Of a DNA stretch of 64,000 bases, positions 14,301 to 55,666 are shown in pieces. The notes under the pieces were generated by a model, which was not told the origin of the DNA, did no database searches, and saw only the letters and a list, made by a program, of their open reading frames with translations. Within the stretch, counting starts at the first letter, position 1, and every line of letters begins with the position of its first letter. The stretch is from Massilia sp. UMI-21. GTDB taxonomy: Bacteria; Pseudomonadota; Gammaproteobacteria; Burkholderiales; Burkholderiaceae_D. A program made the translations under genes and the position numbers. The stretch covers positions 248,001 to 312,000 of the forward strand of contig CP063848.1 in assembly GCA_015277795.1 (NCBI GenBank), given 5' to 3'.

Positions 14301-15641
14301 ATGACCAGCAAAGTTCTCTGGGGCGAAGGTCTGTTATTGCGTCCCCAGCACTTCCAGCGGCAAGACCACTACCACGAGCAATGCCTCCAAAAAAGCATCA
14401 AGGCGGTGCATCCTTATGCCTGGGGTGTCGAGGCCTTGCAGGTCGACCGCGCGGCCCTGGCCAACAGCGTCCTGCGGCTGCTGGCGCTGTCGGTGCGCTT
14501 CCAGGACGGCGAACTGGTCGACGCACCGGAGATCGACGCCCTGCCCGAGACGGTGGACCTGAGCCTGCTGCCGCCGTCGCAGCAAACCATCACGTATTAC
14601 GTCGCCCTGCCCGGCCTGAAACCCTTTACCGGCAATTTCACGCCGCCCGGCCAAACCAGCAACACGGCGCGTTTCGTGCAGGCGAACCAGGACACGCCGG
14701 ACCTGTACACCCAGGCCGCGCCGGTGCAGCTGGCCTACCTGAAAAAGGCGGTGCGGCTGGTGTCGGAAGCCGACCCGCGCGACTCCTACATCCACTTCCC
14801 GCTGCTGCGCCTGCGGCGTGCAGCGAGCGGCGGCTTCGAGAACGACGACAGCTTCGTCCCGCCGACGCTGTCGGTGGGCGCTGCCCCGGTGCTGTTCCAG
14901 CAGCTGCGCCGCCTGCTGGACGCCCTGCAGGCCAAGACCGCCGCGCTGTACGGCCACCAGCGCGAGCCGAGCCGCAACGTGGTGGAGTTCCGCTCGGGCG
15001 ACATGTCCTCGTTCTGGCTGCTGCACACGGCCAGCTCCGCGTATGCGACCCTGACCCATCACTTCCACCATCCGGCCCTGCATCCGGAGCGCCTGTACGA
15101 GCAGTTGCTCGACCTCGCGGGCGGCCTGATGACCTTTTCCAAGAGCTGGACCTTGTCCGACCTGCCGCCCTACCAGCACAACGACCCGGGACCGGGCTTC
15201 GCCCAGCTGCACACCATCATTCGCGAGCTGCTCGACACCGTGATCTCCTCGAAATACTTCGCGATCGCACTCAGCGAGGTGCGCCCGTCCTACCACATCG
15301 GCGCGCTCGACTCGGGCAAGATCGACGAAAAGACCACCTTCTACATCGCGGTGTCGGCAGCGATTCCGGCGGTGGAACTGGTGGACGTGGTGCCGCTGCG
15401 CTTCAAGGTCGGCGCGCCCGACGACGTGGAAAAATTCGTGCTGTCGGCACTGCCGGGGGTGCGCCTGCAGTACGCACCGCAGCTGCCCGCGGCGGTGCCG
15501 GTGCGTCCCGAGACCTGCTACTTCGTGCTGGAAGCGAAAGGGGCGATGTACGAGCGCATGCTCAAGGCCCAGTCCATCTCGATCTATGTCCCGGCCGGCA
15601 TGAAGGAACTGCGGCTGGAACTGCTGGCCGTCACGGCATGA
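14301..15641 (+). CDS. tssK: Type VI secretion system baseplate subunit TssK
   Basis: A 446-residue trimeric protein that docks the TssEFG wedges to the TssJLM membrane complex; its shoulder domain is related to siphophage receptor-binding proteins. The start KVLWGEGLLLRPQHFQRQDHYHE is diagnostic. PLLRLRRA near residue 170 and the C-terminal VELVDVVPLRFKVGAP...GVRLQY are typical. GAGGGAAGAG precedes the ATG. It overlaps vgrG by ATGA, so baseplate assembly and spike production are coupled. Sheath, inner-tube, ATPase and membrane-complex genes (tssB, C, D, H, J, L, M, A) are not in this window. Confidence 0.96.
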   Translation: MTSKVLWGEGLLLRPQHFQRQDHYHEQCLQKSIKAVHPYAWGVEALQVDRAALANSVLRLLALSVRFQDGELVDAPEIDALPETVDLSLLPPSQQTITYYVALPGLKPFTGNFTPPGQTSNTARFVQANQDTPDLYTQAAPVQLAYLKKAVRLVSEADPRDSYIHFPLLRLRRAASGGFENDDSFVPPTLSVGAAPVLFQQLRRLLDALQAKTAALYGHQREPSRNVVEFRSGDMSSFWLLHTASSAYATLTHHFHHPALHPERLYEQLLDLAGGLMTFSKSWTLSDLPPYQHNDPGPGFAQLHTIIRELLDTVISSKYFAIALSEVRPSYHIGALDSGKIDEKTTFYIAVSAAIPAVELVDVVPLRFKVGAPDDVEKFVLSALPGVRLQYAPQLPAAVPVRPETCYFVLEAKGAMYERMLKAQSISIYVPAGMKELRLELLAVTA

Positions 15642-18406
15642 AGGCGGCGCCGGAGTTCCCGACCCTGGGCGTCTACGGCACGGGGCTGAGCCAGCACGCG
15701 CGGCTGATCACCCTGGCGAGCAGCCAGGACAGCGCGCTGCCCGAAGCGCTGGTGGTGGAAGGCTTCAGCGGGTTTGAAGCCGTCAACGAACTGTTCGGCT
15801 TCGACGTGGACGCGCTCAGCACCTCCACCGACCTCGACCTGGCACTGTTCATCGGCGAAGAACTCACCGTCGGACTGCTCCAGCCGGACGGCAGCCGGCG
15901 CATGTGGCACGGCCTGTGCACCTCGGCCTCGTGGCTGGGAGCGGACGGCGGCGTGGCGCGCTATCGCCTGCGCGTGGAACCGGCCCTGGGCATGCTGGCG
16001 CTGCGCCGCGACAGCTACATCTTCCAGGACAAGAACGTCCGCGAGATCGTCTGTGAATTACTCGCCGATTATCCACAGCTGCGCTTCGAGTTCGACATTG
16101 CGCAGCCGCTGCCGGCGCGCGCGGTGTGCACGCAGTACCGCGAGAGCGACCTGGATTTCTTCACGCGCCTGCTGGCGTCGGAAGGGCTGAACTGGCGCTT
16201 CGAACACGACCAGGCGGACGATCGCGATGACGGCGCGCATGGGCAGGCCAGGCACCGCCTGGTGATCTTCGACAGCAGGGCGGCGCTGCCCGCGACGCCG
16301 GGCGGAAACCTGATCCGCTTCCATGGCGTGCGGGCGACCGAGACCGATGATGCGATCGACGGCTTTCGCGCGCGCCGCGCGGTGCGGGCGAACGGGGTCG
16401 CGATCAGCAGCTGGGATCCGGCGCAGTTGCTGGCGCCTGGATACGAGCATGCCAGCCACCTGGATGCGGGCGAGCTGCCGGCGCTGCAGATCTACGATGG
16501 CAGTGGGGAGCGCATCGCCAGCGAGCGCCGTGCGGCCGATGCGCACGCCGAACTGATGCTGCAAGCGCTCGAGTTGGAGATCAAGCTGTTCGAAGGAACC
16601 GGGGCGGTGCGGCGGCTGGCAGCCGGTCACGCGTTTCACTTGAGCCAGCACGAGCGCTATCCGCAAGGTGAGAACGCCTTCAAGCTGCTGTCGGTGCGGC
16701 ACGAAGGGCGCAACAATCTCGCTACCGGCATTGCGGGCGCCGTGTCGTCGGGTGTCGAGAACGGCAGCTATCGCAATGTGTTCACTTGCGTGCGCGAGCT
16801 GGTACCGCTGGTGCCGCGCCTGACCACGGCGCCGCATCGGATCACGGCGCCGGGGCCGCAGTGCGCGCTGGTGGTTGGGCTGGCGGATGCGGTGTCGACC
16901 ACCCATCGCGATCATCAGGTGCGCATCCAGTTCGCGTGGCAGCGGGGCAGTCGTCCCAATCCGGGGGGCATGGCGCACAACACGGACCACAAAGGCTGCG
17001 CACCGGGCAACGAGACCTCAGGCACCTGGGTGCGCGTGGCCGAGGCGCTGGCCGGGCCCAACTGGGGCACGGTGTTCACGCCGCGCATCGGGACCGAAGT
17101 GCTGGTCGACTTCATCGAAGGCGATATCGACCGGCCGGTCATCGTGGCCCAGCTCCATAACGGCGCCGACCTGCCGCCGTTCTCGGCCGGCGTCGATTCG
17201 GGCGCCAACCATGCCGGCGCGCTGTCCGGAATCCACACCCGCAACTTCGACGGCAGCGGCTACAACCAGTGGCAGATCGACGACACCACCGGACAGCTGC
17301 GCATGCGCCTGGCGACCAGCCTCGGCGCCACCCAGCTCAATCTCGGTTACCTGATCCACCAGGAGCCCGGCAGTGCGCAGCGTGGCGCCTACCGCGGCAC
17401 TGGTTTCGAGCTACGTACCGATGCCTGGGCGGTGATCCGCGGTGGCGAAGGCGTGCTCTTATCCACACGCGCACGTCCGGCCCTGGGAAGCAGCGTCAGT
17501 TCGACGCAGATGGATGTGTCGGAGGCGCTGGCGCAGTTCACGTCCGCCCAGGCCTTATCCACCAGGCTGGGCGACGCGGCGGCCCGGCAGCAGGCCTTGT
17601 TCAGCAAGGACGCCTCGCAGGCGCAGGCGGAATTCATCGCGCAGATCGATCCGCAGGAGAAAGGCAAGTATCCGGGGCCGGTGAACGGCCAGTCGGCCTT
17701 CAAAGCCAAGCCGGGGTCGCGCGAACTTGATTCCGCGCAGCCTGTGGAAAAGTTTGGCGTCCCGATCGTGCTGATGGATTCGGCGGCCAGCATCAACTGG
17801 GCCACGCCGGCATCGACCGTGCTGTACGCCGGGAAGCACCTGCACTGGACCACGCAGTCGGATCTGCACATGACGGCGGGGCACACGTTTTCGTCGGTCT
17901 CCGGCGGCGCGACCAGCCTGTTCACTCACGCTGGCGGCATCCAGGCGATCGCGGCGAACGGGTCGGTGTCGCTGCAGGCGCATACCGATGGGCTGGAGAT
18001 CCTGGCGGACAAGGAGATTACGGTGATCTCGGTGAATGACTGCATCGAGATCAAGGCCAAGGAAAAGATCGTGCTGCAGGCGGGGGAGTCGTCGATCACG
18101 CTGGAGGGTGGGGATATCACGTTTGCGTGTCCGGGGACGTTTTCGGTGAAGGGGGGGCAGCATGTTTTTGGTAGCGGCGGTAAAGCTGAAGTCGAGTTAT
18201 TAAGGTTGCCAGATTCCACCGTACGACAGTTCGACGAAGCTTTCGTTCTCGTAGACCGATCGACGGGAAGTCCGCTTGCGAACACGGATTACCGAATCAA
18301 GTACGCAAGCGGAGGGGTTGAATATGGTCGAACCGATGCCGAGGGGCAGACACATCTCGTACGGACTTTAGCATCCGAAGAAATCTATATCGAGGTCATG
18401 TCGTGA
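15638..18406 (+). CDS. vgrG: Type VI secretion spike protein VgrG with C-terminal cargo-adaptor extension
   Basis: A 922-residue spike protein. The first ~390 residues are gp27-like, with the landmark CTQYRESDLDFFTRLLASEGL. About 398-580 is the gp5-like OB fold and neck (HRDHQVRIQFAWQRGS, NWGTVFTPRIGTEVLVDF). About 714-845 is the DUF2345-type beta needle ending near FSVKGGQHVFGSGG. The last ~77 residues form a small beta domain (FDEAFVLVDRSTGSPLANTDY...GRTDAEGQTHLV), a transthyretin-like type seen on VgrGs that carry cargo. DNA for that extension is markedly more AT-rich than the preceding 2.5 kb. Start overlaps the tssK stop (ATGA); the stop overlaps the next gene's GTG (GTGA). Confidence 0.95.
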   Translation: MKAAPEFPTLGVYGTGLSQHARLITLASSQDSALPEALVVEGFSGFEAVNELFGFDVDALSTSTDLDLALFIGEELTVGLLQPDGSRRMWHGLCTSASWLGADGGVARYRLRVEPALGMLALRRDSYIFQDKNVREIVCELLADYPQLRFEFDIAQPLPARAVCTQYRESDLDFFTRLLASEGLNWRFEHDQADDRDDGAHGQARHRLVIFDSRAALPATPGGNLIRFHGVRATETDDAIDGFRARRAVRANGVAISSWDPAQLLAPGYEHASHLDAGELPALQIYDGSGERIASERRAADAHAELMLQALELEIKLFEGTGAVRRLAAGHAFHLSQHERYPQGENAFKLLSVRHEGRNNLATGIAGAVSSGVENGSYRNVFTCVRELVPLVPRLTTAPHRITAPGPQCALVVGLADAVSTTHRDHQVRIQFAWQRGSRPNPGGMAHNTDHKGCAPGNETSGTWVRVAEALAGPNWGTVFTPRIGTEVLVDFIEGDIDRPVIVAQLHNGADLPPFSAGVDSGANHAGALSGIHTRNFDGSGYNQWQIDDTTGQLRMRLATSLGATQLNLGYLIHQEPGSAQRGAYRGTGFELRTDAWAVIRGGEGVLLSTRARPALGSSVSSTQMDVSEALAQFTSAQALSTRLGDAAARQQALFSKDASQAQAEFIAQIDPQEKGKYPGPVNGQSAFKAKPGSRELDSAQPVEKFGVPIVLMDSAASINWATPASTVLYAGKHLHWTTQSDLHMTAGHTFSSVSGGATSLFTHAGGIQAIAANGSVSLQAHTDGLEILADKEITVISVNDCIEIKAKEKIVLQAGESSITLEGGDITFACPGTFSVKGGQHVFGSGGKAEVELLRLPDSTVRQFDEAFVLVDRSTGSPLANTDYRIKYASGGVEYGRTDAEGQTHLVRTLASEEIYIEVMS

Positions 18407-41019: not shown

Positions 41020-42352
41020 GGTTCTTCGCGGGAAATGGGGGAAGACGGTATTGACTGGCTGAGCGGGAGGTGGTGGCGGAGGTCTGATGTTGGTAGATTG
41101 ATAGTCGCCAAACAAATCAGTCTGTCAAACCACCGCCATGCTCAATGCTATGTCGTCTGTCTCATTTTGGGAAGGCCATATTGTCGACACCGTCCAGGAA
41201 CAAGAAGACGGGTCGCTGTTAATCGTTCTCGACACCTGCCCGGCAAGTGATGCCGTGTGCGGAGCGTGCCTCCAGCCTTGTGCCCTGGTGCATGAACGCC
41301 GAAGGCGTAAGGTGCGCGATCGTGACGTTCTGGACAAGCGCGTCTGGCTCGATGTGCCGGTTCGGCGGCTGGACTGTCATCACTGCAATGCACGGGTGGC
41401 CGAGCACATTGTTTGGCTTGACCGGGGAGCTCGCATTACGCACCGCGTGCGCCTTTGGGTCGAGGCGTTGGCGCAGCTGCTCCCGATAGCCCATGTGGCC
41501 CGACTGACCGGCCTGCACTGGCACACCATCAAGGACATCGATCATCGGCGGCTGAAACACCTGCATGGTGACTTCTCGGCAGAAGGCGTTCAGCGCTTGG
41601 TCATGGACGAATTCGCGCTGCACAAAGGCCACCGCTATGCCACTGTGGCCTTGGATGCCGAGCGAATGCGGGTGCTGTGGGTTGGAGAGGGTAATAGCCG
41701 GGAAGCGATCCGACCATTCTTCGAGCTGCTGGGAGAGCAAGGCTGTCAGCGAATCGAAGCCGTAGCCATGGACATGAACACGGCGATGGACCTCGAAGTT
41801 CGCCAGCAATGCCCGAACGCGGAAGTCGTCTACGACCTGTTTCACGTGGTGGCCCGCTTCGGCCGCGAAGTGGTAGACCGGGTTCGCGTCGACCAAGCCA
41901 ATGCCTTGCGTGCCGAATCAAAGGCCCGCAAGGTCATCAAGCGTAGCCGCTGGCTGTTACTGCGCAACCGCGACAACCTGAAAGCCGAACAGGCCGTCAA
42001 ACTGGAGGAGCTGCTGGCTGCCAACCAGCCTTTGGCGACGGTCTACCTGCTCAAGACCGAGTTGAAGGAAATCTGGTATGCCCCATCGGTCCGGGAAGGT
42101 GCTCGTCGATGGAAAACCTGGCTCAAACTCGCCCTTCAAAGCCAAATCGCTCCGGTAATCCAATTCGCCAAACGTTTGGCCAAATACCGGCGCGGCATCC
42201 TGGCTTCGGCCATCTATCCGATGAGCTCATCGATCCTGGAAGGCGTCAACAACCGCATCAAGGTCATCAAGCGCATGGCCTACGGATTTCGGGATGCATC
42301 TTATTTCTTCCTGAAAATCAAGGATGCGTTCCCCGGCAAAGCGCGATGAACC
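41020..42352 (+). mobile_element. ISL3-family insertion sequence, 1333 bp, apparently intact
   Basis: The left end begins GGTTCTTCGCGGG and the right end, read inward, GGTTCATCGCGCT. About 10 of the first 11 bases match, and GGGGAA is shared further in. Both sides are flanked by TTTTTTTT, an 8-base direct repeat of the length ISL3 elements produce. One full-length transposase gene fills the element, with its stop codon inside the right inverted repeat. Intact ends, intact gene and matching duplications suggest a recent insertion. Confidence 0.88.
41138..42349 (+). CDS. ISL3-family transposase
   Basis: A 403-residue transposase. The N-terminal zinc-finger region has paired cysteines (CGACLQPC and later CHHC), followed by the helix-turn-helix (LAQLLPIAHVARLTGLHWHTIK). 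The DDE domain has VMDEFALHKGHRYATV, then VAMDMNTAMDLEV and, near the C-terminus, SSSILEGVNNRIKVIKRMAYGF with the catalytic glutamate. The terminal YGFRDASYFFLKI is the family's usual ending. No frameshift or stop is present. It is oriented with putA, so promoter-like sequence at the IS left end, not putA readthrough, probably drives it. Confidence 0.94.
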   Translation: MLNAMSSVSFWEGHIVDTVQEQEDGSLLIVLDTCPASDAVCGACLQPCALVHERRRRKVRDRDVLDKRVWLDVPVRRLDCHHCNARVAEHIVWLDRGARITHRVRLWVEALAQLLPIAHVARLTGLHWHTIKDIDHRRLKHLHGDFSAEGVQRLVMDEFALHKGHRYATVALDAERMRVLWVGEGNSREAIRPFFELLGEQGCQRIEAVAMDMNTAMDLEVRQQCPNAEVVYDLFHVVARFGREVVDRVRVDQANALRAESKARKVIKRSRWLLLRNRDNLKAEQAVKLEELLAANQPLATVYLLKTELKEIWYAPSVREGARRWKTWLKLALQSQIAPVIQFAKRLAKYRRGILASAIYPMSSSILEGVNNRIKVIKRMAYGFRDASYFFLKIKDAFPGKAR

Positions 42353-45000: not shown

Positions 45001-45220
45001 GTTAACTAAAGTTTGTATACAAACTGGTAGTAGATAGTAAACGCGGCCTCTTCTGTTGATAACTTGCGTTTACTCCACAGGATCAAGAACTTGCAGATGC
45101 GTTTACCGGCTGTACAAAGCCTGCATGGTGTTGGGACGGAAGGTGGACAGATTTTGGCGTTGCCAGGAAATGCAGCGTTCTGCACATCCGATCCTGTGGA
45201 TATACATCGACTTTTCCACA
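45001..45220. repeat. Origin repeat unit A
   Basis: Contains the perfect palindrome GTTTGTATACAAAC (45011-45024), then GGTAGTAGATAGTAAACG with TAG-type trinucleotides. DnaA-box-like 9-mers are TGTTGATAA (45054-45062), TACTCCACA (45071-45079), TGTGGATAT (45195-45203) and TTTTCCACA (45212-45220). Shared minor blocks are CTGTACAA and TGGACAGATTTTG. Same order of elements as units B and C. Confidence 0.8.
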
Positions 45221-45334
45221 GTGGCGCCGGCAGAAGCCGGCAAGAACAGCTTGCAGACCGTGTCGCCGGTAGTTCGAAGGCACGACGGTGTTCCGATGCG
45301 CATGCAGTCGAGTTGGCAGCAATCGTTTTTTTTT

Positions 45335-46403
45335 GGCTCTGTCAGCGTTGACTATGGATGAGGCCTGAACTGCTGAGCTCCTCGATGGTCGAACACCTGT
45401 CTCCATCGACAGGAAGCGGCCATGAAAACACCCAGCTTCAGGAAGTGGTTCGCGCGCGTTTCCGCGCTGAACGGGGCGCAGCGCCAACAAACACTGGCGG
45501 CATTGCATCCGGCCGCGGGGCTGGACCGGATCGTCGCGCTCATCGAGCAGATCCGCGCACCCCAACGCGCGTGTCCGCGCTGCGCCTGCACGCGCTGCCA
45601 TCGGCACGGCCATGCCAACGGCCTGCAGCGCTACCGCTGCCGGGAATGTGGCCGCAGCTTCAACGACCTGAGCGGCACGCCTTTTGCGCGGTTGCGGCTG
45701 CGCGAAAAATGGCTCGACTACCTGGACGCATTGATCGAGGCCAAATCGGTGCGGCGTGCCGCCCTTGACGTCGACGTGCACCGCAACACCGCGTTTCGCT
45801 GGCGCCACCGCTTCGTCGACCGGGTCAAGCACGACCAGCCGCAACAACTGAGCGGCATCGTCGAGGCCGATGAAATGTTCATCCTGGAATCGCAAAAGGG
45901 CGCGCGCAAGCTGGACCGGGCGCCGAGGAAGCGTGGCGGCGCGGCGCGCAAACGCGGCATCTCGAGCGAGCTCGACTGCATCCTGGTGGCGCGCGACCGC
46001 GCCAGGCAGACCATCGGCGCACTGGTCGGGCGCGGGGCCTTGAAGGCGGTGCACCTGGAACGCCACCTGCTGCCCAGGCTCGACCGGCAAGCACTCCTGG
46101 TCAGCGACGCCAATGCCGCCTACCGGGCCTTCTCACGCAAACATGGGATTGCCCACCAGGCGGTCAACCTGCGCGCCGGCGTGCGGGTGCGCCGTCACGC
46201 CGCCATCGCCATCCACGTCCAGAACGTCAACGCCTTCCATCAGCGTCTGCGCGACTGGCTGGCCCGCTTTCGCGGCGTGGCATCGCGCTATCTGCCGAAT
46301 TACCTGGGTTGGCACCGGGCGCTCGACGGCGCAAGGGTAATTGCTGCGGAACAGTTCTTACGCATCGCAATCGGCGTCATCAACATTTAAAGGTGACAGC
46401 GCC
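45335..46403 (+). mobile_element. IS1595-family (ISXO2-like) insertion sequence, 1069 bp
   Basis: The left end reads GGCTCTGTCAGCG and the right end, inward, GGCGCTGTCACCT; nine of the first ten bases match, as expected for short IS1595 terminal repeats. Each side is flanked by a run of nine T residues, so an 8-base target duplication within poly-T is consistent. The single transposase gene is intact. It is inserted between origin repeat units A and B. Confidence 0.85.
45422..46390 (+). CDS. IS1595-family transposase (ISXO2-like)
   Basis: A 322-residue transposase. An N-terminal zinc ribbon (CPRC and CREC with flanking HGH, residues about 56-85, ending SFNDLSGTPFARLR) is followed by a helix-turn-helix (AALDVDVHRNTAFRWRHRF). 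The ISXO2 catalytic domain has VEADEMFILES, LLVSDANAAYRAFSRKHGI and HVQNVNAFHQRLRDWLARFRGVASRYLPNYLGWHR, the last block with the Asn/His set typical of this family. AGGAAG precedes the ATG. No disruption is visible, so the element may be active. Confidence 0.93.
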   Translation: MKTPSFRKWFARVSALNGAQRQQTLAALHPAAGLDRIVALIEQIRAPQRACPRCACTRCHRHGHANGLQRYRCRECGRSFNDLSGTPFARLRLREKWLDYLDALIEAKSVRRAALDVDVHRNTAFRWRHRFVDRVKHDQPQQLSGIVEADEMFILESQKGARKLDRAPRKRGGAARKRGISSELDCILVARDRARQTIGALVGRGALKAVHLERHLLPRLDRQALLVSDANAAYRAFSRKHGIAHQAVNLRAGVRVRRHAAIAIHVQNVNAFHQRLRDWLARFRGVASRYLPNYLGWHRALDGARVIAAEQFLRIAIGVINI

Positions 46404-46484
46404 TTTTTTTTTCGCTGGCAGTTTGTCCAGACCTGGTGCAGGGACGGCAGTGAAAGCGCGGCATGCGCGTTATCAGTGTTGTTG

Positions 46485-46704
46485 TAGTAAACAAGTTTGT
46501 ATACAAACTGGTAGTAATAGTAAACGAGCCCGTTCTTGTGGATAACAAGAGTTTTCTCCACAACGTCAATGGTTTACGGTGGCGTTAACACGCTGTACAA
46601 GACCTCGGTTTGACGTGTAGGAAACTTGGACAGAATTTTGACAGACCAAGTTAGCGGGCTGTTCTACACATTCGTTCCTGTGGATATCCCAGCGGTTTTC
46701 CACA
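46485..46704. repeat. Origin repeat unit B
   Basis: GTTTGTATACAAAC (46495-46508) identical to unit A, then GGTAGTAATAGTAAACG. Boxes are TGTGGATAA (46537-46545, perfect DnaA box on the minus strand), TTCTCCACA (46554-46562), TGTGGATAT (46679-46687) and TTTTCCACA (46696-46704). CTGTACAA and TGGACAGAATTTTG occupy the same relative places as in A. Removing the IS puts A and B about 400 bp apart. Confidence 0.82.
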
Positions 46705-46969
46705 GATGCCAGCCACAAGACGTTGTTCTTGGCGGCAATGCTCGTCTGCGCGCTGCCGACGCCAGCCAGGCTTGCAAGTGGAGATGCCGGCGTTGGCGGT
46801 CTTACCGGCCTGGCGAAGTCAATCGTCGCAGCCTTTTTCGGCAGCCTTTCGTCGTCAGCCTGCTTGCAGGCTTTCACTTGCAGGCACATGCGGCCAGCGA
46901 GGGCTGGAGCTGCATGTGTCCGCTCGATGCGACGCGAACAAAATTTTTTTTGAAGCGCATCCCAAAGGT
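46705..46969. other. Spacer between origin units B and C
   Basis: About 265 bases rich in GCAGCC/GCCAGC and CTTGCAGG-type words, ending in an AAAATTTTTTTT tract (46941-46951). It has no gene that I can support; overlapping short frames on both strands are shadows. The poly-T corresponds to the poly-T that hosts the IS1595 after unit A. Confidence 0.5.
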
Positions 46970-47194
46970 TTACAAGCTAAGTATGTATACAACGGTAGTA
47001 GTAGTGGTTAACGCTGGCACCAAGTTGTGGAAAACAGGGTTAACGTCCAAGTAATCATGTACTTACCGACCGTATAAGCCAGTGCATCAATGGCGCGTGG
47101 AAGCCTTGTAAAAACTGGACAAGATTTTGGGGACCCCGCAATTGCCCCGGTTCTGCACAAATCAGGCCTGTGGATATCAAGAGGCTTATCCACA
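46970..47194. repeat. Origin repeat unit C
   Basis: More diverged: GTATGTATACAAC (46981-46993), then CGGTAGTAGTAGTGG with three consecutive TAG triplets (46996-47004). Boxes are TGTGGAAAA (47027-47035), TGTGGATAT (47169-47177) and the perfect TTATCCACA (47186-47194), the last two facing each other across 8 bases. TGGACAAGATTTTG corresponds to the block in A and B. Unit B to C distance is about 490 bp. Confidence 0.78.
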
Positions 47195-47359
47195 GAGGGG
47201 GTATGGACTTCCGTTTACGATCTGGTAAGCTTGCCTCAACGAATCAGGAACGGAGGGCTGGTGGATCTCGACGCGACGTTTCGACAGCCCGAATTGCGTG
47301 TACCGGGGAGCGCGGGCCTGCGTCCTTTGTTCATCCGATTCATTTCCTGACGCCAGCCC

Positions 47360-51105: not shown

Positions 51106-51121
51106 TGTTCCACGTGAAACA
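51106..51121. promoter_or_regulatory. parS-like site 1
   Basis: TGTTCCACGTGAAACA differs from the parS consensus TGTTTCACGTGAAACA at one base. It begins immediately after the TauE-type gene stop codon. ParB encoded 3.7 kb downstream should bind it. Confidence 0.9.
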
Positions 51122-51125
51122 GCAA

Positions 51126-51150
51126 AGCCGGGCTCGCCCGGCTTTTCTCT
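51126..51150 (+). terminator. Terminator of the TauE-type gene, between parS sites
   Basis: AGCCGGG and CCCGGCT pair around a CTCG loop and are followed by TTTCTCTT. It ends 2 bases before parS site 2. Confidence 0.75.
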
Positions 51151-51151
51151 T

Positions 51152-51167
51152 TGTTCCACGTGAAACA
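51152..51167. promoter_or_regulatory. parS-like site 2
   Basis: TGTTCCACGTGAAACA, identical to site 1, 46 bases further right. Confidence 0.9.
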
Positions 51168-51188
51168 TCGTGGATAGCAAAGGCTGAC

Positions 51189-51204
51189 CGTTCCACGTGA
51201 AACA
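51189..51204. promoter_or_regulatory. parS-like site 3
   Basis: CGTTCCACGTGAAACA, two differences from consensus, 37 bases after site 2. Three sites inside 99 bases give a compact ParB nucleation cluster upstream of mnmG. Confidence 0.85.
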
Positions 51205-53989: not shown

Positions 53990-54760
53990 ATGGCGAAGAT
54001 TTTTTGCGTAGCGAACCAGAAGGGCGGGGTCGGGAAGACCACCACCACCGTCAACCTGTCGGCAGGCCTGGCCAAGCTGAACCAGCGCGTGCTGCTGGTC
54101 GACCTCGACCCGCAGGGCAATGCCACGATGGGCGCGGGCATCAACAAGGCCGCGCTCGAAGGCTCGATCTACCAGGTACTGCTGGGCGAGCTCGACGTGA
54201 CCGCCGCGCGCCAGCGCTCGGAGGCAGGGCGCTTCGACGTGCTGCCCGCCAACCGCGAGCTGGCCGGCGCCGAGGTCGAGATGGTCGCCCTGGAAAACCG
54301 CGAGCGCCGTCTCAAGGAAGCGCTGGCGGCGGTGGACCAGGATTACGACTTCATCCTGGTCGACTGCCCGCCCGCGCTGTCGCTGCTGACCCTGAACGGA
54401 CTGTGCGCGGCGCACGGCGTGATCATCCCGATGCAGTGCGAGTACTACGCGCTCGAAGGACTGTCCGACCTGGTCAACACGATCAAGAAGGTGCATGCCA
54501 ACCTGAACACCGACCTGCGCATCATCGGTTTGCTGCGGGTGATGTTCGATCCGCGCATGACCTTGTCGCAGCAGGTGTCGAGCCAGCTCGAACAGCACTT
54601 CGGCGACAAGGTCTTCAAGACCATCATTCCGCGCAACGTGCGTCTGGCCGAAGCGCCGTCCTACGGCATGCCGGGCGTGGTGTTCGATCCGTCCTCGAAG
54701 GGCGCGCAGGCGTACATCGCCTTCGGCGCGGAGATGGTCGAGCGCATCAAGACGATGTGA
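53990..54760 (+). CDS. parA: Chromosome-partitioning ATPase ParA (Soj)
   Basis: A 256-residue deviant Walker ATPase without a helix-turn-helix extension, so of the chromosomal type. MAKIFCVANQKGGVGKTTTTVNL holds the Walker A loop with the signature lysine, LLVDLDPQGNATMG the A' box, and FILVDCPPALSLLTLNGL Walker B. It moves ParB-parS complexes over the nucleoid. It lies 33 bases before parB and 2.8 kb from three parS-like sites, making a complete ParABS system. Confidence 0.97.
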   Translation: MAKIFCVANQKGGVGKTTTTVNLSAGLAKLNQRVLLVDLDPQGNATMGAGINKAALEGSIYQVLLGELDVTAARQRSEAGRFDVLPANRELAGAEVEMVALENRERRLKEALAAVDQDYDFILVDCPPALSLLTLNGLCAAHGVIIPMQCEYYALEGLSDLVNTIKKVHANLNTDLRIIGLLRVMFDPRMTLSQQVSSQLEQHFGDKVFKTIIPRNVRLAEAPSYGMPGVVFDPSSKGAQAYIAFGAEMVERIKTM

Positions 54761-54793
54761 CCGTAAAAACTAGTTCTGAAAGCTGACACAGAT

Positions 54794-55666
54794 ATGGCAA
54801 GCAAAAAACTCAAGGGCCTCGGACGCGGCCTCGACGCGCTGCTCGGCGGCGACAGCCAGCCGGCCCCGGTGAAAGCGCCTTCTTCCTTGAAGATCGACCA
54901 GATCCAGGCCGGCAAGTACCAGCCGCGTACGCGCATGGACGAAACCTCGCTCAGCGAACTGGCCGCCTCGATCAAGACCCAGGGCATCATGCAGCCGGTG
55001 CTGGTGCGTCCGCTGGGGGAGGGCGCCCAGGTGCCGTACGAGATCATTGCCGGCGAGCGCCGCTTCCGCGCGGCCCAAATGGCCGGGCTCGACGAGATCC
55101 CGGTGCTGGTGCGCGACGTCGACGACCAGTCCGCCGCGGCCATGGCCCTGATCGAGAACATCCAGCGCGAAGACCTGAACCCGCTCGAAGAGGCGCAGGG
55201 CATCCAGCGCCTGATCAACGACTTCAGCTTTACCCACGAGCAGGCCGCCGCCGCGGTCGGCCGCTCGCGCAGCGCCGTCTCGAACCTGCTGCGCCTGATT
55301 AACCTGGCCCAGCCGGTGCAAACCATGCTGATGGCCGGCGACATCGACATGGGCCACGCGCGCGCGCTGCTGGCGGTCGACAGTGCCGAACAGATCACCC
55401 TGGCCACCCAGGTGATCGCCAAGCGCCTGTCGGTACGCGAAACCGAAAAGCTGGTGGCCCGCGCGCTCGAAGAGCAGTCGAGCCCGGCGGTTGCGGCGCG
55501 CGCCAAGGACAAGCCGGGCGACATCGTGCGCCTGGAAGAGGAACTGTCGGACAAGCTGGCGACGCCGGTGGTATTCAAGATGGGCGCCAAGGGTAAAGGC
55601 CAGCTGATCATCGACTTCGCCGACCTCGACATCCTGGATGGTGTGCTGGCCCGCCTGCGCGCCTGA
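54794..55666 (+). CDS. parB: Chromosome-partitioning protein ParB (Spo0J)
   Basis: A 290-residue CTP-dependent clamp. KKLKGLGRGLDALLG is the N-terminal ParA-stimulating segment with arginine. The CTP-binding domain has IQAGKYQPRTRMDE, QGIMQPVLVRP, GERRFRAAQMAG and IENIQREDLNPLEEA. The helix-turn-helix FTHEQAAAAVGRSRSAVSNLLRL reads parS, and the C-terminal domain dimerises. Length is normal. It loads at the TGTTCCACGTGAAACA sites upstream of mnmG. Confidence 0.97.
   Translation: MASKKLKGLGRGLDALLGGDSQPAPVKAPSSLKIDQIQAGKYQPRTRMDETSLSELAASIKTQGIMQPVLVRPLGEGAQVPYEIIAGERRFRAAQMAGLDEIPVLVRDVDDQSAAAMALIENIQREDLNPLEEAQGIQRLINDFSFTHEQAAAAVGRSRSAVSNLLRLINLAQPVQTMLMAGDIDMGHARALLAVDSAEQITLATQVIAKRLSVRETEKLVARALEEQSSPAVAARAKDKPGDIVRLEEELSDKLATPVVFKMGAKGKGQLIIDFADLDILDGVLARLRA

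What the first reader, a model, noticed from the sequence alone, without database searches (positions are those of the whole stretch)
45001..47200. Triplicated DnaA-box/trio cluster that looks like the chromosome origin
Three related units, each with a GTATAC palindrome (GTTTGTATACAAAC identical in A and B), TAG trinucleotide runs like DnaA-trios (three in a row in C), and paired DnaA-like boxes near the unit end (TGTGGATAT facing TTTTCCACA or TTATCCACA). Two boxes are perfect. The order of elements is the same in each unit, so the region arose by duplication. The neighbours mnmG-rsmG-parAB-atp and parS are standard next to bacterial origins, and genes to the right all run away from it. Three tandem, spaced basal-unwinding-like modules would be an unusual origin design.
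Basis: partly seen in the sequence, partly recalled or inferred. Interest (0 to 1): 0.88.

Follow-up and report, generated by a model that had tools for sequence, protein, structure and literature searches.

The report
Replication origin in three tandem copies
The place where this Massilia-like bacterium very probably starts copying its chromosome is not one origin but three similar, nearly complete origin modules in a row, an arrangement kept in most genomes of its genus that were searched, with two modules common in the wider family, so a system thought of as a single start site may be built with spares.

Summary
Three ~220-bp modules lie at 45007-45225, 46491-46709 and 46978-47200. Each has an AT-rich GTATAC stretch, TAG trinucleotides, an R1-type DnaA box, a loose IHF-like motif and a facing DnaA-box pair. 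An IS1595-family element (45335-46403) splits A from B.

The locus is 293 kb from dnaA, 4 kb from the only parS cluster found. KOPS polarity excludes an origin at dnaA and places the switch at roughly 140-300 kb; GC skew is too weak to use. A whole-genome model search found no other module.

In the genus 53 of 59 genomes have three matches, five have two, one has four. In other genera of the family 70 of 109 have two or more. Further out, matches are mostly weak and single. Spacing and orientation vary, and the tree suggests repeated, separate triplication.

Best reading: one chromosomal origin built from repeated, self-contained oriC modules. That each can open DNA alone is inferred. Only B meets the published BUS rules; A's trio run is frame-broken and C's gap is long, and across the family the published 16-bp rule does no better than shuffles. 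The paper listings seen named no such natural array.

The parts
45007..45225 (+). oriC module A (first type)
   Evidence: profile hit 45008-45224, 141 bits; alignment A1
45011..45024 (+). GTTTGTATACAAAC palindrome in the AT-rich stretch of A
   Evidence: sequence
45028..45037 (+). TAG-TAG-A-TAG, trio-like run broken by one base (A)
45054..45062 (-). R1-type DnaA box of A, one mismatch (TTATCAACA on the - strand)
45195..45220 (.). facing DnaA-box pair of A (TGTGGATAT / TTTTCCACA)
45335..46403 (+). IS1595-family element inserted between A and B, inverted ends, T-run on both sides
   Evidence: two full-length copies of 94-95% identity in the sampled part of the genome
45422..46390 (+). transposase of that element (PF12762, ISXO2-like)
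46491..46709 (+). oriC module B (first type, best BUS match)
   Evidence: profile hit 46491-46708, 133 bits
46512..46523 (+). TAG-TAA-TAG-TAA, four in-frame trios, 13 bp from the box (B)
46537..46545 (-). perfect R1-type DnaA box of B; a second box (TTCTCCACA) faces it at 46554-46562
46679..46704 (.). facing DnaA-box pair of B
46978..47200 (+). oriC module C (last type)
   Evidence: profile hit 46978-47197, 132 bits
46996..47004 (+). TAG-TAG-TAG, three trios, 21 bp from the box (C)
47026..47034 (-). R1-type DnaA box of C, one mismatch
47169..47194 (.). facing DnaA-box pair of C, right box perfect
51106..51204 (.). parS cluster (three sites), the only one found in the genome
   Evidence: contig 299106-299204
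51293..53224 (+). mnmG
53990..55666 (+). parA (53990-54760) and parB (54794-55666)

Best explanation
This is the chromosomal replication origin of a Massilia/Telluria-group bacterium, built from three tandem copies of a complete ~220-bp oriC module. In each module DnaA would bind the outer facing box pair and the R1-type box, an IHF-like bend would bring them together, and DnaA would extend from the R1 box onto the TAG trios to open the AT-rich GTATAC stretch. I think the modules act as redundant, largely self-contained opening sites inside one initiation zone. Module B probably does most of the opening; A and C raise local DnaA and serve as back-up. Shown here: the modules, their conservation, no other copy found in the genome, parS proximity, and a strand-polarity switch that excludes dnaA. 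Inferred: DnaA and IHF binding, unwinding, the leading role of B, and that a module can work alone. My probabilities: origin here 0.93; individually competent modules 0.5.
For: Module anatomy and alignment. No other module found in the genome. Only parS cluster found is 4 kb away. KOPS GGGNAGGG: 0-120 kb 2 plus and 13 minus, like the left arm; 294-412 kb 17 and 6, like the right arm; flip at the dif-like site 2,842,885. Log-likelihood of an origin at dnaA is 24 units below that at 294 kb. One DnaA box between contig 5,299,000 and 3,000 around dnaA. In the genus 59 of 59 genomes have modules, 53 exactly three. Among seven close species modules are 79-93% identical, spacers 71-85% against 65-81% for single shuffles. 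In 175 modules, against local shuffles: R1 box with at most one mismatch 173 of 175 against 42 of 3500; strict facing pair 138 against 0; loose IHF motif 162 against 79; two adjacent TAG/TAA 174 against 444 of 3500, three adjacent 109 against 21. Orientation and gap vary: 43-2600 bp, 4 of 69 multi-module loci inverted, three of these with a gene between, which argues against one fixed-geometry complex. The middle module has a perfect R1 box in 30 of 31 genomes, A in 20 of 31, C in 11 of 30.
Against: The KOPS change-point fits 140 kb best (294 kb is 6.6 log units lower); 120-294 kb is mixed, 14:14. The polarised 10-mer has its first plus site at 249,580, before the modules. Arms are not quite equal: the point opposite the dif-like site is about 192 kb. 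GC skew is uninformative. The loose trio rule (three NAN in frame) is unspecific: 123 of 175 modules against 1601 of 3500 local shuffles, and with the published 16-bp limit 49 of 175 against 1317 of 3500, no better than chance. Three adjacent TAG/TAA are found in only 48 of 98 modules of the genus. The strict IHF consensus is in 40 of 175 modules and in none of the three window modules. Outside the genus the strict facing pair is in 46 of 77. Of the family genomes outside the genus 29 of 109 show one match and 10 show none. No functional data.
Confidence: 0.8

Rival explanations
1. Composite origin with one working unwinding module (probably B). A and C are DnaA recruiting or timing sites that loop onto it, as in bipartite origins.
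For: B has the perfect R1 box in 30 of 31 genomes and four in-frame trios here; A and C differ from it in position-specific ways. In H. pylori-type bipartite origins only oriC2 opens (PMC5043019, passages).
Against: A and C keep the whole module, AT-rich part and R1 box included, at similar identity to B. In G015 both modules left are of the first type, in G159 both fall with the last type, and in G063 the last type was copied, so no position looks irreplaceable.
Confidence: 0.33
2. The modules are DnaA-titration or reactivation sites (datA/DARS-like) near the origin, and replication starts elsewhere.
For: KOPS change-point is broad (140-300 kb) and its best fit is not at the modules.
Against: No other module was found by whole-genome search, and in the sampled 2.06 Mb the next box clusters hold at most 3 boxes in 500 bp against 5 here. 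Each unit has an AT-rich stretch and TAG runs, which titration sites do not need (recalled). Position beside parS and mnmG-parAB is that of origins (E. coli oriC lies beside mnmG).
Confidence: 0.06
3. Origin at dnaA, as the record's numbering (dnaA near base 391) suggests.
For: Record starts at dnaA; one perfect DnaA box just upstream at 5,302,504.
Against: 0-120 kb carries left-arm KOPS polarity (2:13); 30.8 log units below the best fit; a single box around dnaA.
Confidence: 0.02
4. Modules split the labour: two of them each load one helicase, for the two fork directions.
For: Two is the commonest number in the family sample (56 of 116).
Against: Same orientation in 65 of 69 multi-module loci, while opposite forks would favour opposite polarity; only one match in some genomes.
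Confidence: 0.08

Closest known systems
Escherichia coli oriC (single origin beside mnmG)
   Same: Order of R1 box in reverse, ATCAA motif and further boxes, ending in TTATCCACA; next to mnmG-rsmG
   Different: One copy in E. coli, three here. Sequence kinship is weak: the family profile's best hit in 150 kb of K-12 is in oriC, but only at E 0.05 (9.0 bits), with an unrelated place at 8.3 bits; the genus profile gives E 0.31 at best, at the edge of oriC
Basal unwinding system (DnaA box, spacer, DnaA-trios)
   Same: Box and TAG trios in the polarity 3'-box-spacer-GAT-5'; module B fits box, trios and 13-bp spacer
   Different: Repeated three times; A and C deviate; the published search ended with one candidate in nearly all genomes (PMC8287927, methods section)
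Bipartite origins of B. subtilis and H. pylori
   Same: More than one DnaA-box cluster at one origin zone
   Different: There one sub-region holds the unwinding element and dnaA lies between (PMC5043019, passages). Here each module has its own AT-rich part and R1 box, and dnaA is 293 kb away
Putative double origins in DoriC (Gao 2015, PMC4403523)
   Same: Claim of more than one oriC-like region on a bacterial chromosome; Ralstonia pickettii, of the same order (order recalled), is listed
   Different: The pairs listed are 150-882 kb apart or sit at duplicated dnaA genes; here homologous modules lie within 2.2 kb and are kept across many genera
Burkholderia cenocepacia chromosome 1 and Cupriavidus metallidurans CHR1 origin regions
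   Same: Papers describe several separate DnaA-box clusters and, for B. cenocepacia, an uncertain exact origin (PMC4948915, section 6 and passages; PMC2864759, passages)
   Different: Not described as homologous repeated modules in the text seen; these named genomes were not searched by name here

Membership tests
Bacterial chromosomal origin (oriC) | Cluster of DnaA boxes well above background | tested here: met
   10 boxes in 2.2 kb against 0.08 per kb
Bacterial chromosomal origin (oriC) | AT-rich element beside a reverse-oriented R1-type box | tested here: met
   first 40 bp of the three modules 60-70% AT in a 63% GC window; box 48-51 bp in
Bacterial chromosomal origin (oriC) | Lies at the strand-polarity switch | tested here: inconclusive
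   KOPS switch at about 140-300 kb, dnaA excluded, exact place not resolved
Bacterial chromosomal origin (oriC) | Near parS | tested here: met
   only parS cluster found, 4 kb away
Bacterial chromosomal origin (oriC) | Replication starts there; DnaA binds | not testable with these tools
   needs marker-frequency and ChIP data
E. coli-type oriC | IHF site between R1 and the inner boxes | tested here: inconclusive
   strict consensus (recalled) absent in the three window modules, loose form present in all three; loose form 162 of 175 modules against 79 of 3500 local shuffles
Basal unwinding system (BUS) | DnaA box with at most 2 mismatches | tested here: met
   0 or 1 mismatch in A, B, C
Basal unwinding system (BUS) | At least three in-frame trios within 16 bp of the box | tested here: inconclusive
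   B met (4 trios, 13 bp); A not met (run broken); C not met (gap 21 bp). Over 175 modules 49 meet it, no more than shuffles, though adjacent TAG/TAA runs are far above chance
Bipartite oriC | Only one of the sub-regions has the unwinding element | tested here: not met
   all three modules have AT-rich part, TAG runs and R1 box by sequence
Bipartite oriC | DnaA bridges the sub-regions | not testable with these tools
   needs electron microscopy or footprints

The most novel reading that the evidence does not exclude
A large part of a bacterial family runs its main chromosome from an origin made of two to four autonomous oriC modules side by side, gained by repeated independent duplication, each able to open DNA and load a helicase. 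The habit of thinking 'one oriC per chromosome' would then fail at the level of opening sites, and once-per-cycle control would have to act on the whole array.
Probability: 0.4. Interest if true: 0.88.

Novelty: new variant of a known kind. Interest (0 to 1): 0.76.

Why it matters
Bacterial origins are mostly treated as single sites. An array of homologous, near-complete oriC modules, usual in a genus and common in its family, gives natural material for testing how much of an origin is needed, how DnaA chooses where to open, and how repeated opening sites are kept to one firing per cycle. It may also explain why origin mapping in Burkholderia cenocepacia left the exact site uncertain. In the eight genomes of the genus that were measured the modules lie 264-390 kb from dnaA, so numbering such chromosomes from dnaA does not mark the origin.

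Tried and rejected
GC skew: tabulated on 40 sampled stretches and the window; too noisy to place the origin, dropped in favour of KOPS.

Origin at dnaA: rejected.

Chance repeats or a mobile repeat: rejected, since searches of this genome found the module only at this locus and it is kept across the genus.

Kinship with E. coli oriC by sequence: weak only, not claimed as shown.

The loose published trio rule as evidence: dropped after a shuffle control; the TAG/TAA-specific test replaced it.

Relative G061 (modules 719 kb from dnaA) as a second test of origin position. The polarity flip at the terminus (2.41-2.44 Mb) makes arms of about 3.1 and 3.0 Mb from the modules, against 2.4 and 3.7 Mb from dnaA. 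But the listing stopped at 100 of 159 places; 71 of 77 plus sites were listed, so at most 6 remain for everything beyond 3.05 Mb, fewer than a 719-kb plus arm would lead one to expect. Four 20-kb samples between modules and dnaA gave 3 plus and 1 minus; the 20 kb around the modules gave 0 plus and 3 minus, one of them beyond the modules. Inconclusive.

Distance of modules to dnaA: 264-390 kb in eight genomes of the genus; 7-719 kb in 12 of the 14 other genomes given to (two had no usable module position or contig length).

Paper searches for repeated oriC. What I saw were titles and starts of abstracts of capped lists (for example 15 of 199, 20 of 143, 10 of 78). None named a natural tandem oriC array; one search listed the M. 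bovis BCG paper on large tandem duplications, with 'two copies of oriC' in its text. Only open-licence papers are held, so absence from print is not shown.
Full report
WHAT IS THERE. The window is bases 248001-312000 of a single 5,302,561-base contig whose dnaA lies at its start (Bac_DnaA match 391-870). By named relatives the organism is of the Massilia/Telluria group: the five nearest mnmG loci, at 95-98% protein identity, are Massilia species. The three units are at 45007-45225 (A), 46491-46709 (B) and 46978-47200 (C), that is contig 293.0-295.2 kb. They align over their whole length. Consensus order: AT-rich stretch with GTATAC; TAG/TAA trinucleotides; GTWAAC; a spacer; an R1-type DnaA box TGTGGATAA; an ATCA..GGTTTAC motif that resembles an IHF site (IHF consensus recalled); TGGACA; a half-conserved CACA box; and CTGTGGATAT facing TTATCCACAG with 8 bp between. 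Ten DnaA boxes with at most one mismatch lie in 2.2 kb, against 0.08 per kb in 2,064,000 sampled bases.

INSERTION ELEMENT. A and B are 1267 bp apart because an IS1595-family element (45335-46403; transposase PF12762) sits in a run of T. In five near relatives (L050-L054) the gap is 180-182 bp, and two full-length copies at 94-95% identity lie in the sampled part of the genome. So an insertion that moves two modules a kilobase apart has been tolerated.

IS IT THE ORIGIN. For: the only parS cluster found in the genome is at contig 299106-299204, 4 kb from C. Whole-genome searches found the module only here. The FtsK-orienting octamer GGGNAGGG is strongly polar (254:34 on the presumed leading strand of the arms) and flips at the one dif-like site, 3 mismatches from a recalled pattern, at 2,842,885. 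On the origin side, 0-120 kb has 2 plus and 13 minus sites (left-arm-like) and 294-412 kb has 17 plus and 6 minus (right-arm-like); between 120 and 294 kb it is mixed, 14:14. In a change-point fit an origin at dnaA is 30.8 log units below the best value and the modules 6.6 below; the best value is at 140 kb, followed by 190 kb and 265-275 kb at 2.2 below. So dnaA is excluded but the modules are not pinpointed by polarity alone. A rarer polar 10-mer has 76 plus sites, all between 249,580 and 2,754,322, and only two sites of either sign in the first 316 kb (67,942 minus, 249,580 plus); one minus site (990,622) lies inside the plus arm. Between contig 5,299,000 and 3,000, around dnaA, there is one DnaA box. 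Against: the mixed zone, unequal arms, and uninformative GC skew.

HOW COMMON. A sequence-only covariance model was built from 26 modules. All counts are matches at E <= 0.001 in genomes at least 90% complete. Genus: 59 of 59 genomes match; 53 have three matches, five have two (G015, G159, G002, G030, G284), one has four. Family: 106 of 116 genomes match; counts are 0 in 10, 1 in 29, 2 in 56, 3 in 20, 4 in 1; outside the genus 70 of 109 have two or more, and 23 of 40 genera have at least one such genome. Order: of 120 genomes 52 match, 49 of them outside the family, mostly weakly; 6 of these 49 match more than once (48 genomes without a match are not listed by name). Class: 28 of 139 other genomes match, each once. 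The stricter filters used on large sets lose weak matches, so second copies in distant genomes may be missed.

ANATOMY ACROSS SPECIES. 186 modules were extracted; 175 remain after dropping identical ones and those under 200 bases. Against shuffles that keep local composition: R1 box with at most one mismatch 173 of 175 against 42 of 3500; strict facing pair 138 against 0; GTATAC 96 against 35; loose IHF motif 162 against 79, strict 40 against 23. The loose trio rule (three NAN in frame near the box) is met by 123 of 175 but also by 1601 of 3500 shuffles, and with the published 16-bp limit by 49 of 175 against 1317 of 3500; it is no evidence. The specific test is: two adjacent TAG/TAA in 174 of 175 against 444 of 3500, three adjacent in 109 of 175 (48 of 98 in the genus) against 21 of 3500, GTWAAC in 169 against 123. 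By position in the three-module genomes of the genus, the middle module has the perfect R1 box in 30 of 31, A in 20 of 31, C in 11 of 30; the strict facing pair is in 27 of 31, 29 of 31 and 30 of 30. Outside the genus that pair is in 46 of 77. So the positions have become different without any of them losing the module. Among seven close species the modules are 79-93% identical and the spacers 71-85%, against 65-81% for single shuffles with the same aligner.

GEOMETRY. Gaps between neighbouring modules run from 43 to 2600 bp, and 4 of 69 multi-module loci have inverted modules; several loci come from the same genome. Hit lists show inverted pairs also in G075, G112, G002 and G284. In L252 and L258 a phosphorylase-family gene, and in L262 an aldehyde-dehydrogenase-like ORF, lies between the modules. 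The setting is otherwise kept: of 20 fetched loci, the 10 that hold both a putA match of 68-75% and the GMC oxidoreductase have them on opposite sides of the modules. Free spacing and orientation speak for self-contained modules.

HISTORY. In a tree of 176 distinct modules the first-type modules (A and B of the genus, first modules of related genera) form one group (82 rows, support 95/98), and the 31 C modules, with one more row, fall together (92/83) beside last modules of related genera (54 rows, 95/73). A and B therefore come from a copy of the first type, and three modules arose in other ways elsewhere: in G063 the second and third are sisters (99/83), while the middle module of genus g30 groups apart with one other row (99/97). 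In six loci of deeper genera (L251, L256, L261, L262, L266, L267) the two modules of one genome are each other's closest kin, which may mean repeated duplication or gene conversion. In G015 both modules are of the first type; in G159 both fall with the last type. The bootstrap had not settled and some branches are long, so this is a reading, not proof.

MECHANISM. The R1-type box in reverse orientation next to the AT-rich stretch, with trios between, has the polarity of the basal unwinding system: 3'-box, spacer, GAT-5' (trio consensus 3'-GAT-5' seen in the introduction of PMC10721633; box and trio rules in PMC8287927, sections read; the side on which the trios lie is recalled). B meets the published rule (four trios, 13 bp); A has a one-base break and C a 21-bp gap. 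I infer that DnaA bound at the outer pair and R1, with an IHF-like bend, opens the AT-rich stretch, most readily at B, and that A and C raise local DnaA and serve as spare opening sites. That only one match is seen in 29 of 109 family genomes outside the genus is compatible with one module being enough, but does not show it here.

KNOWN WORK. Bipartite origins have one opening sub-region (PMC5043019, passages). Gao 2015 (PMC4403523, whole text read) lists putative double origins and says that there was then no evidence of two functional origins used on one chromosome; a passage of the Ori-Finder 2022 paper (PMC10225481) mentions later work on a natural single-chromosome Vibrio cholerae strain with two functional ones, and predictions of multiple oriCs. 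For B. [quoted passage not shown] metallidurans the text describes box clusters at the skew transition about 90 kb from dnaA and further upstream (PMC2864759, passages). Repeated modules would explain such pictures, but these genomes were not examined by name here. No title or abstract start in the capped lists named a natural tandem oriC array.

VERDICT. Observation confirmed, interpretation supported, scope larger than stated: a repeated-module origin usual in a genus and common in its family. New variant of a known kind.

Noticed in passing
45335-46403: IS1595-family element inserted inside the origin array, with two full-length copies of 94-95% identity in the sampled part of the genome (L037, L139).
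   Followed up: partly
16069-17751: Four DnaA boxes with at most one mismatch (16069, 17459, 17555, 17743), two perfect, inside a VgrG-like type VI secretion gene (14381-18406) in a low-GC stretch.
   Followed up: no
41138-42349: ISL3-family transposase about 3 kb left of module A.
   Followed up: no
contig 140-293 kb of G000 (L016-L020 and window): Zone between dnaA and the modules with mixed KOPS polarity and very few of the polarised 10-mer; may be a young rearrangement.
   Followed up: partly
G015, G002, G284 (L075 for G015): Genomes of the genus with only two modules, facing each other with about a 43-bp gap; in G015, the one placed in the tree, neither module falls with the last-type ones.
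   Followed up: partly
G263, G261, G175, G205, G239, G255: Six genomes of other families in the order with two or three module matches, possible independent cases of repeated modules.
   Followed up: no
L002-L008: Seven equal-scoring 265-aa ORFs with a weak DnaA-family match across the genome, probably transposon helper ATPases (IstB-like; recalled, not tested).
   Followed up: no
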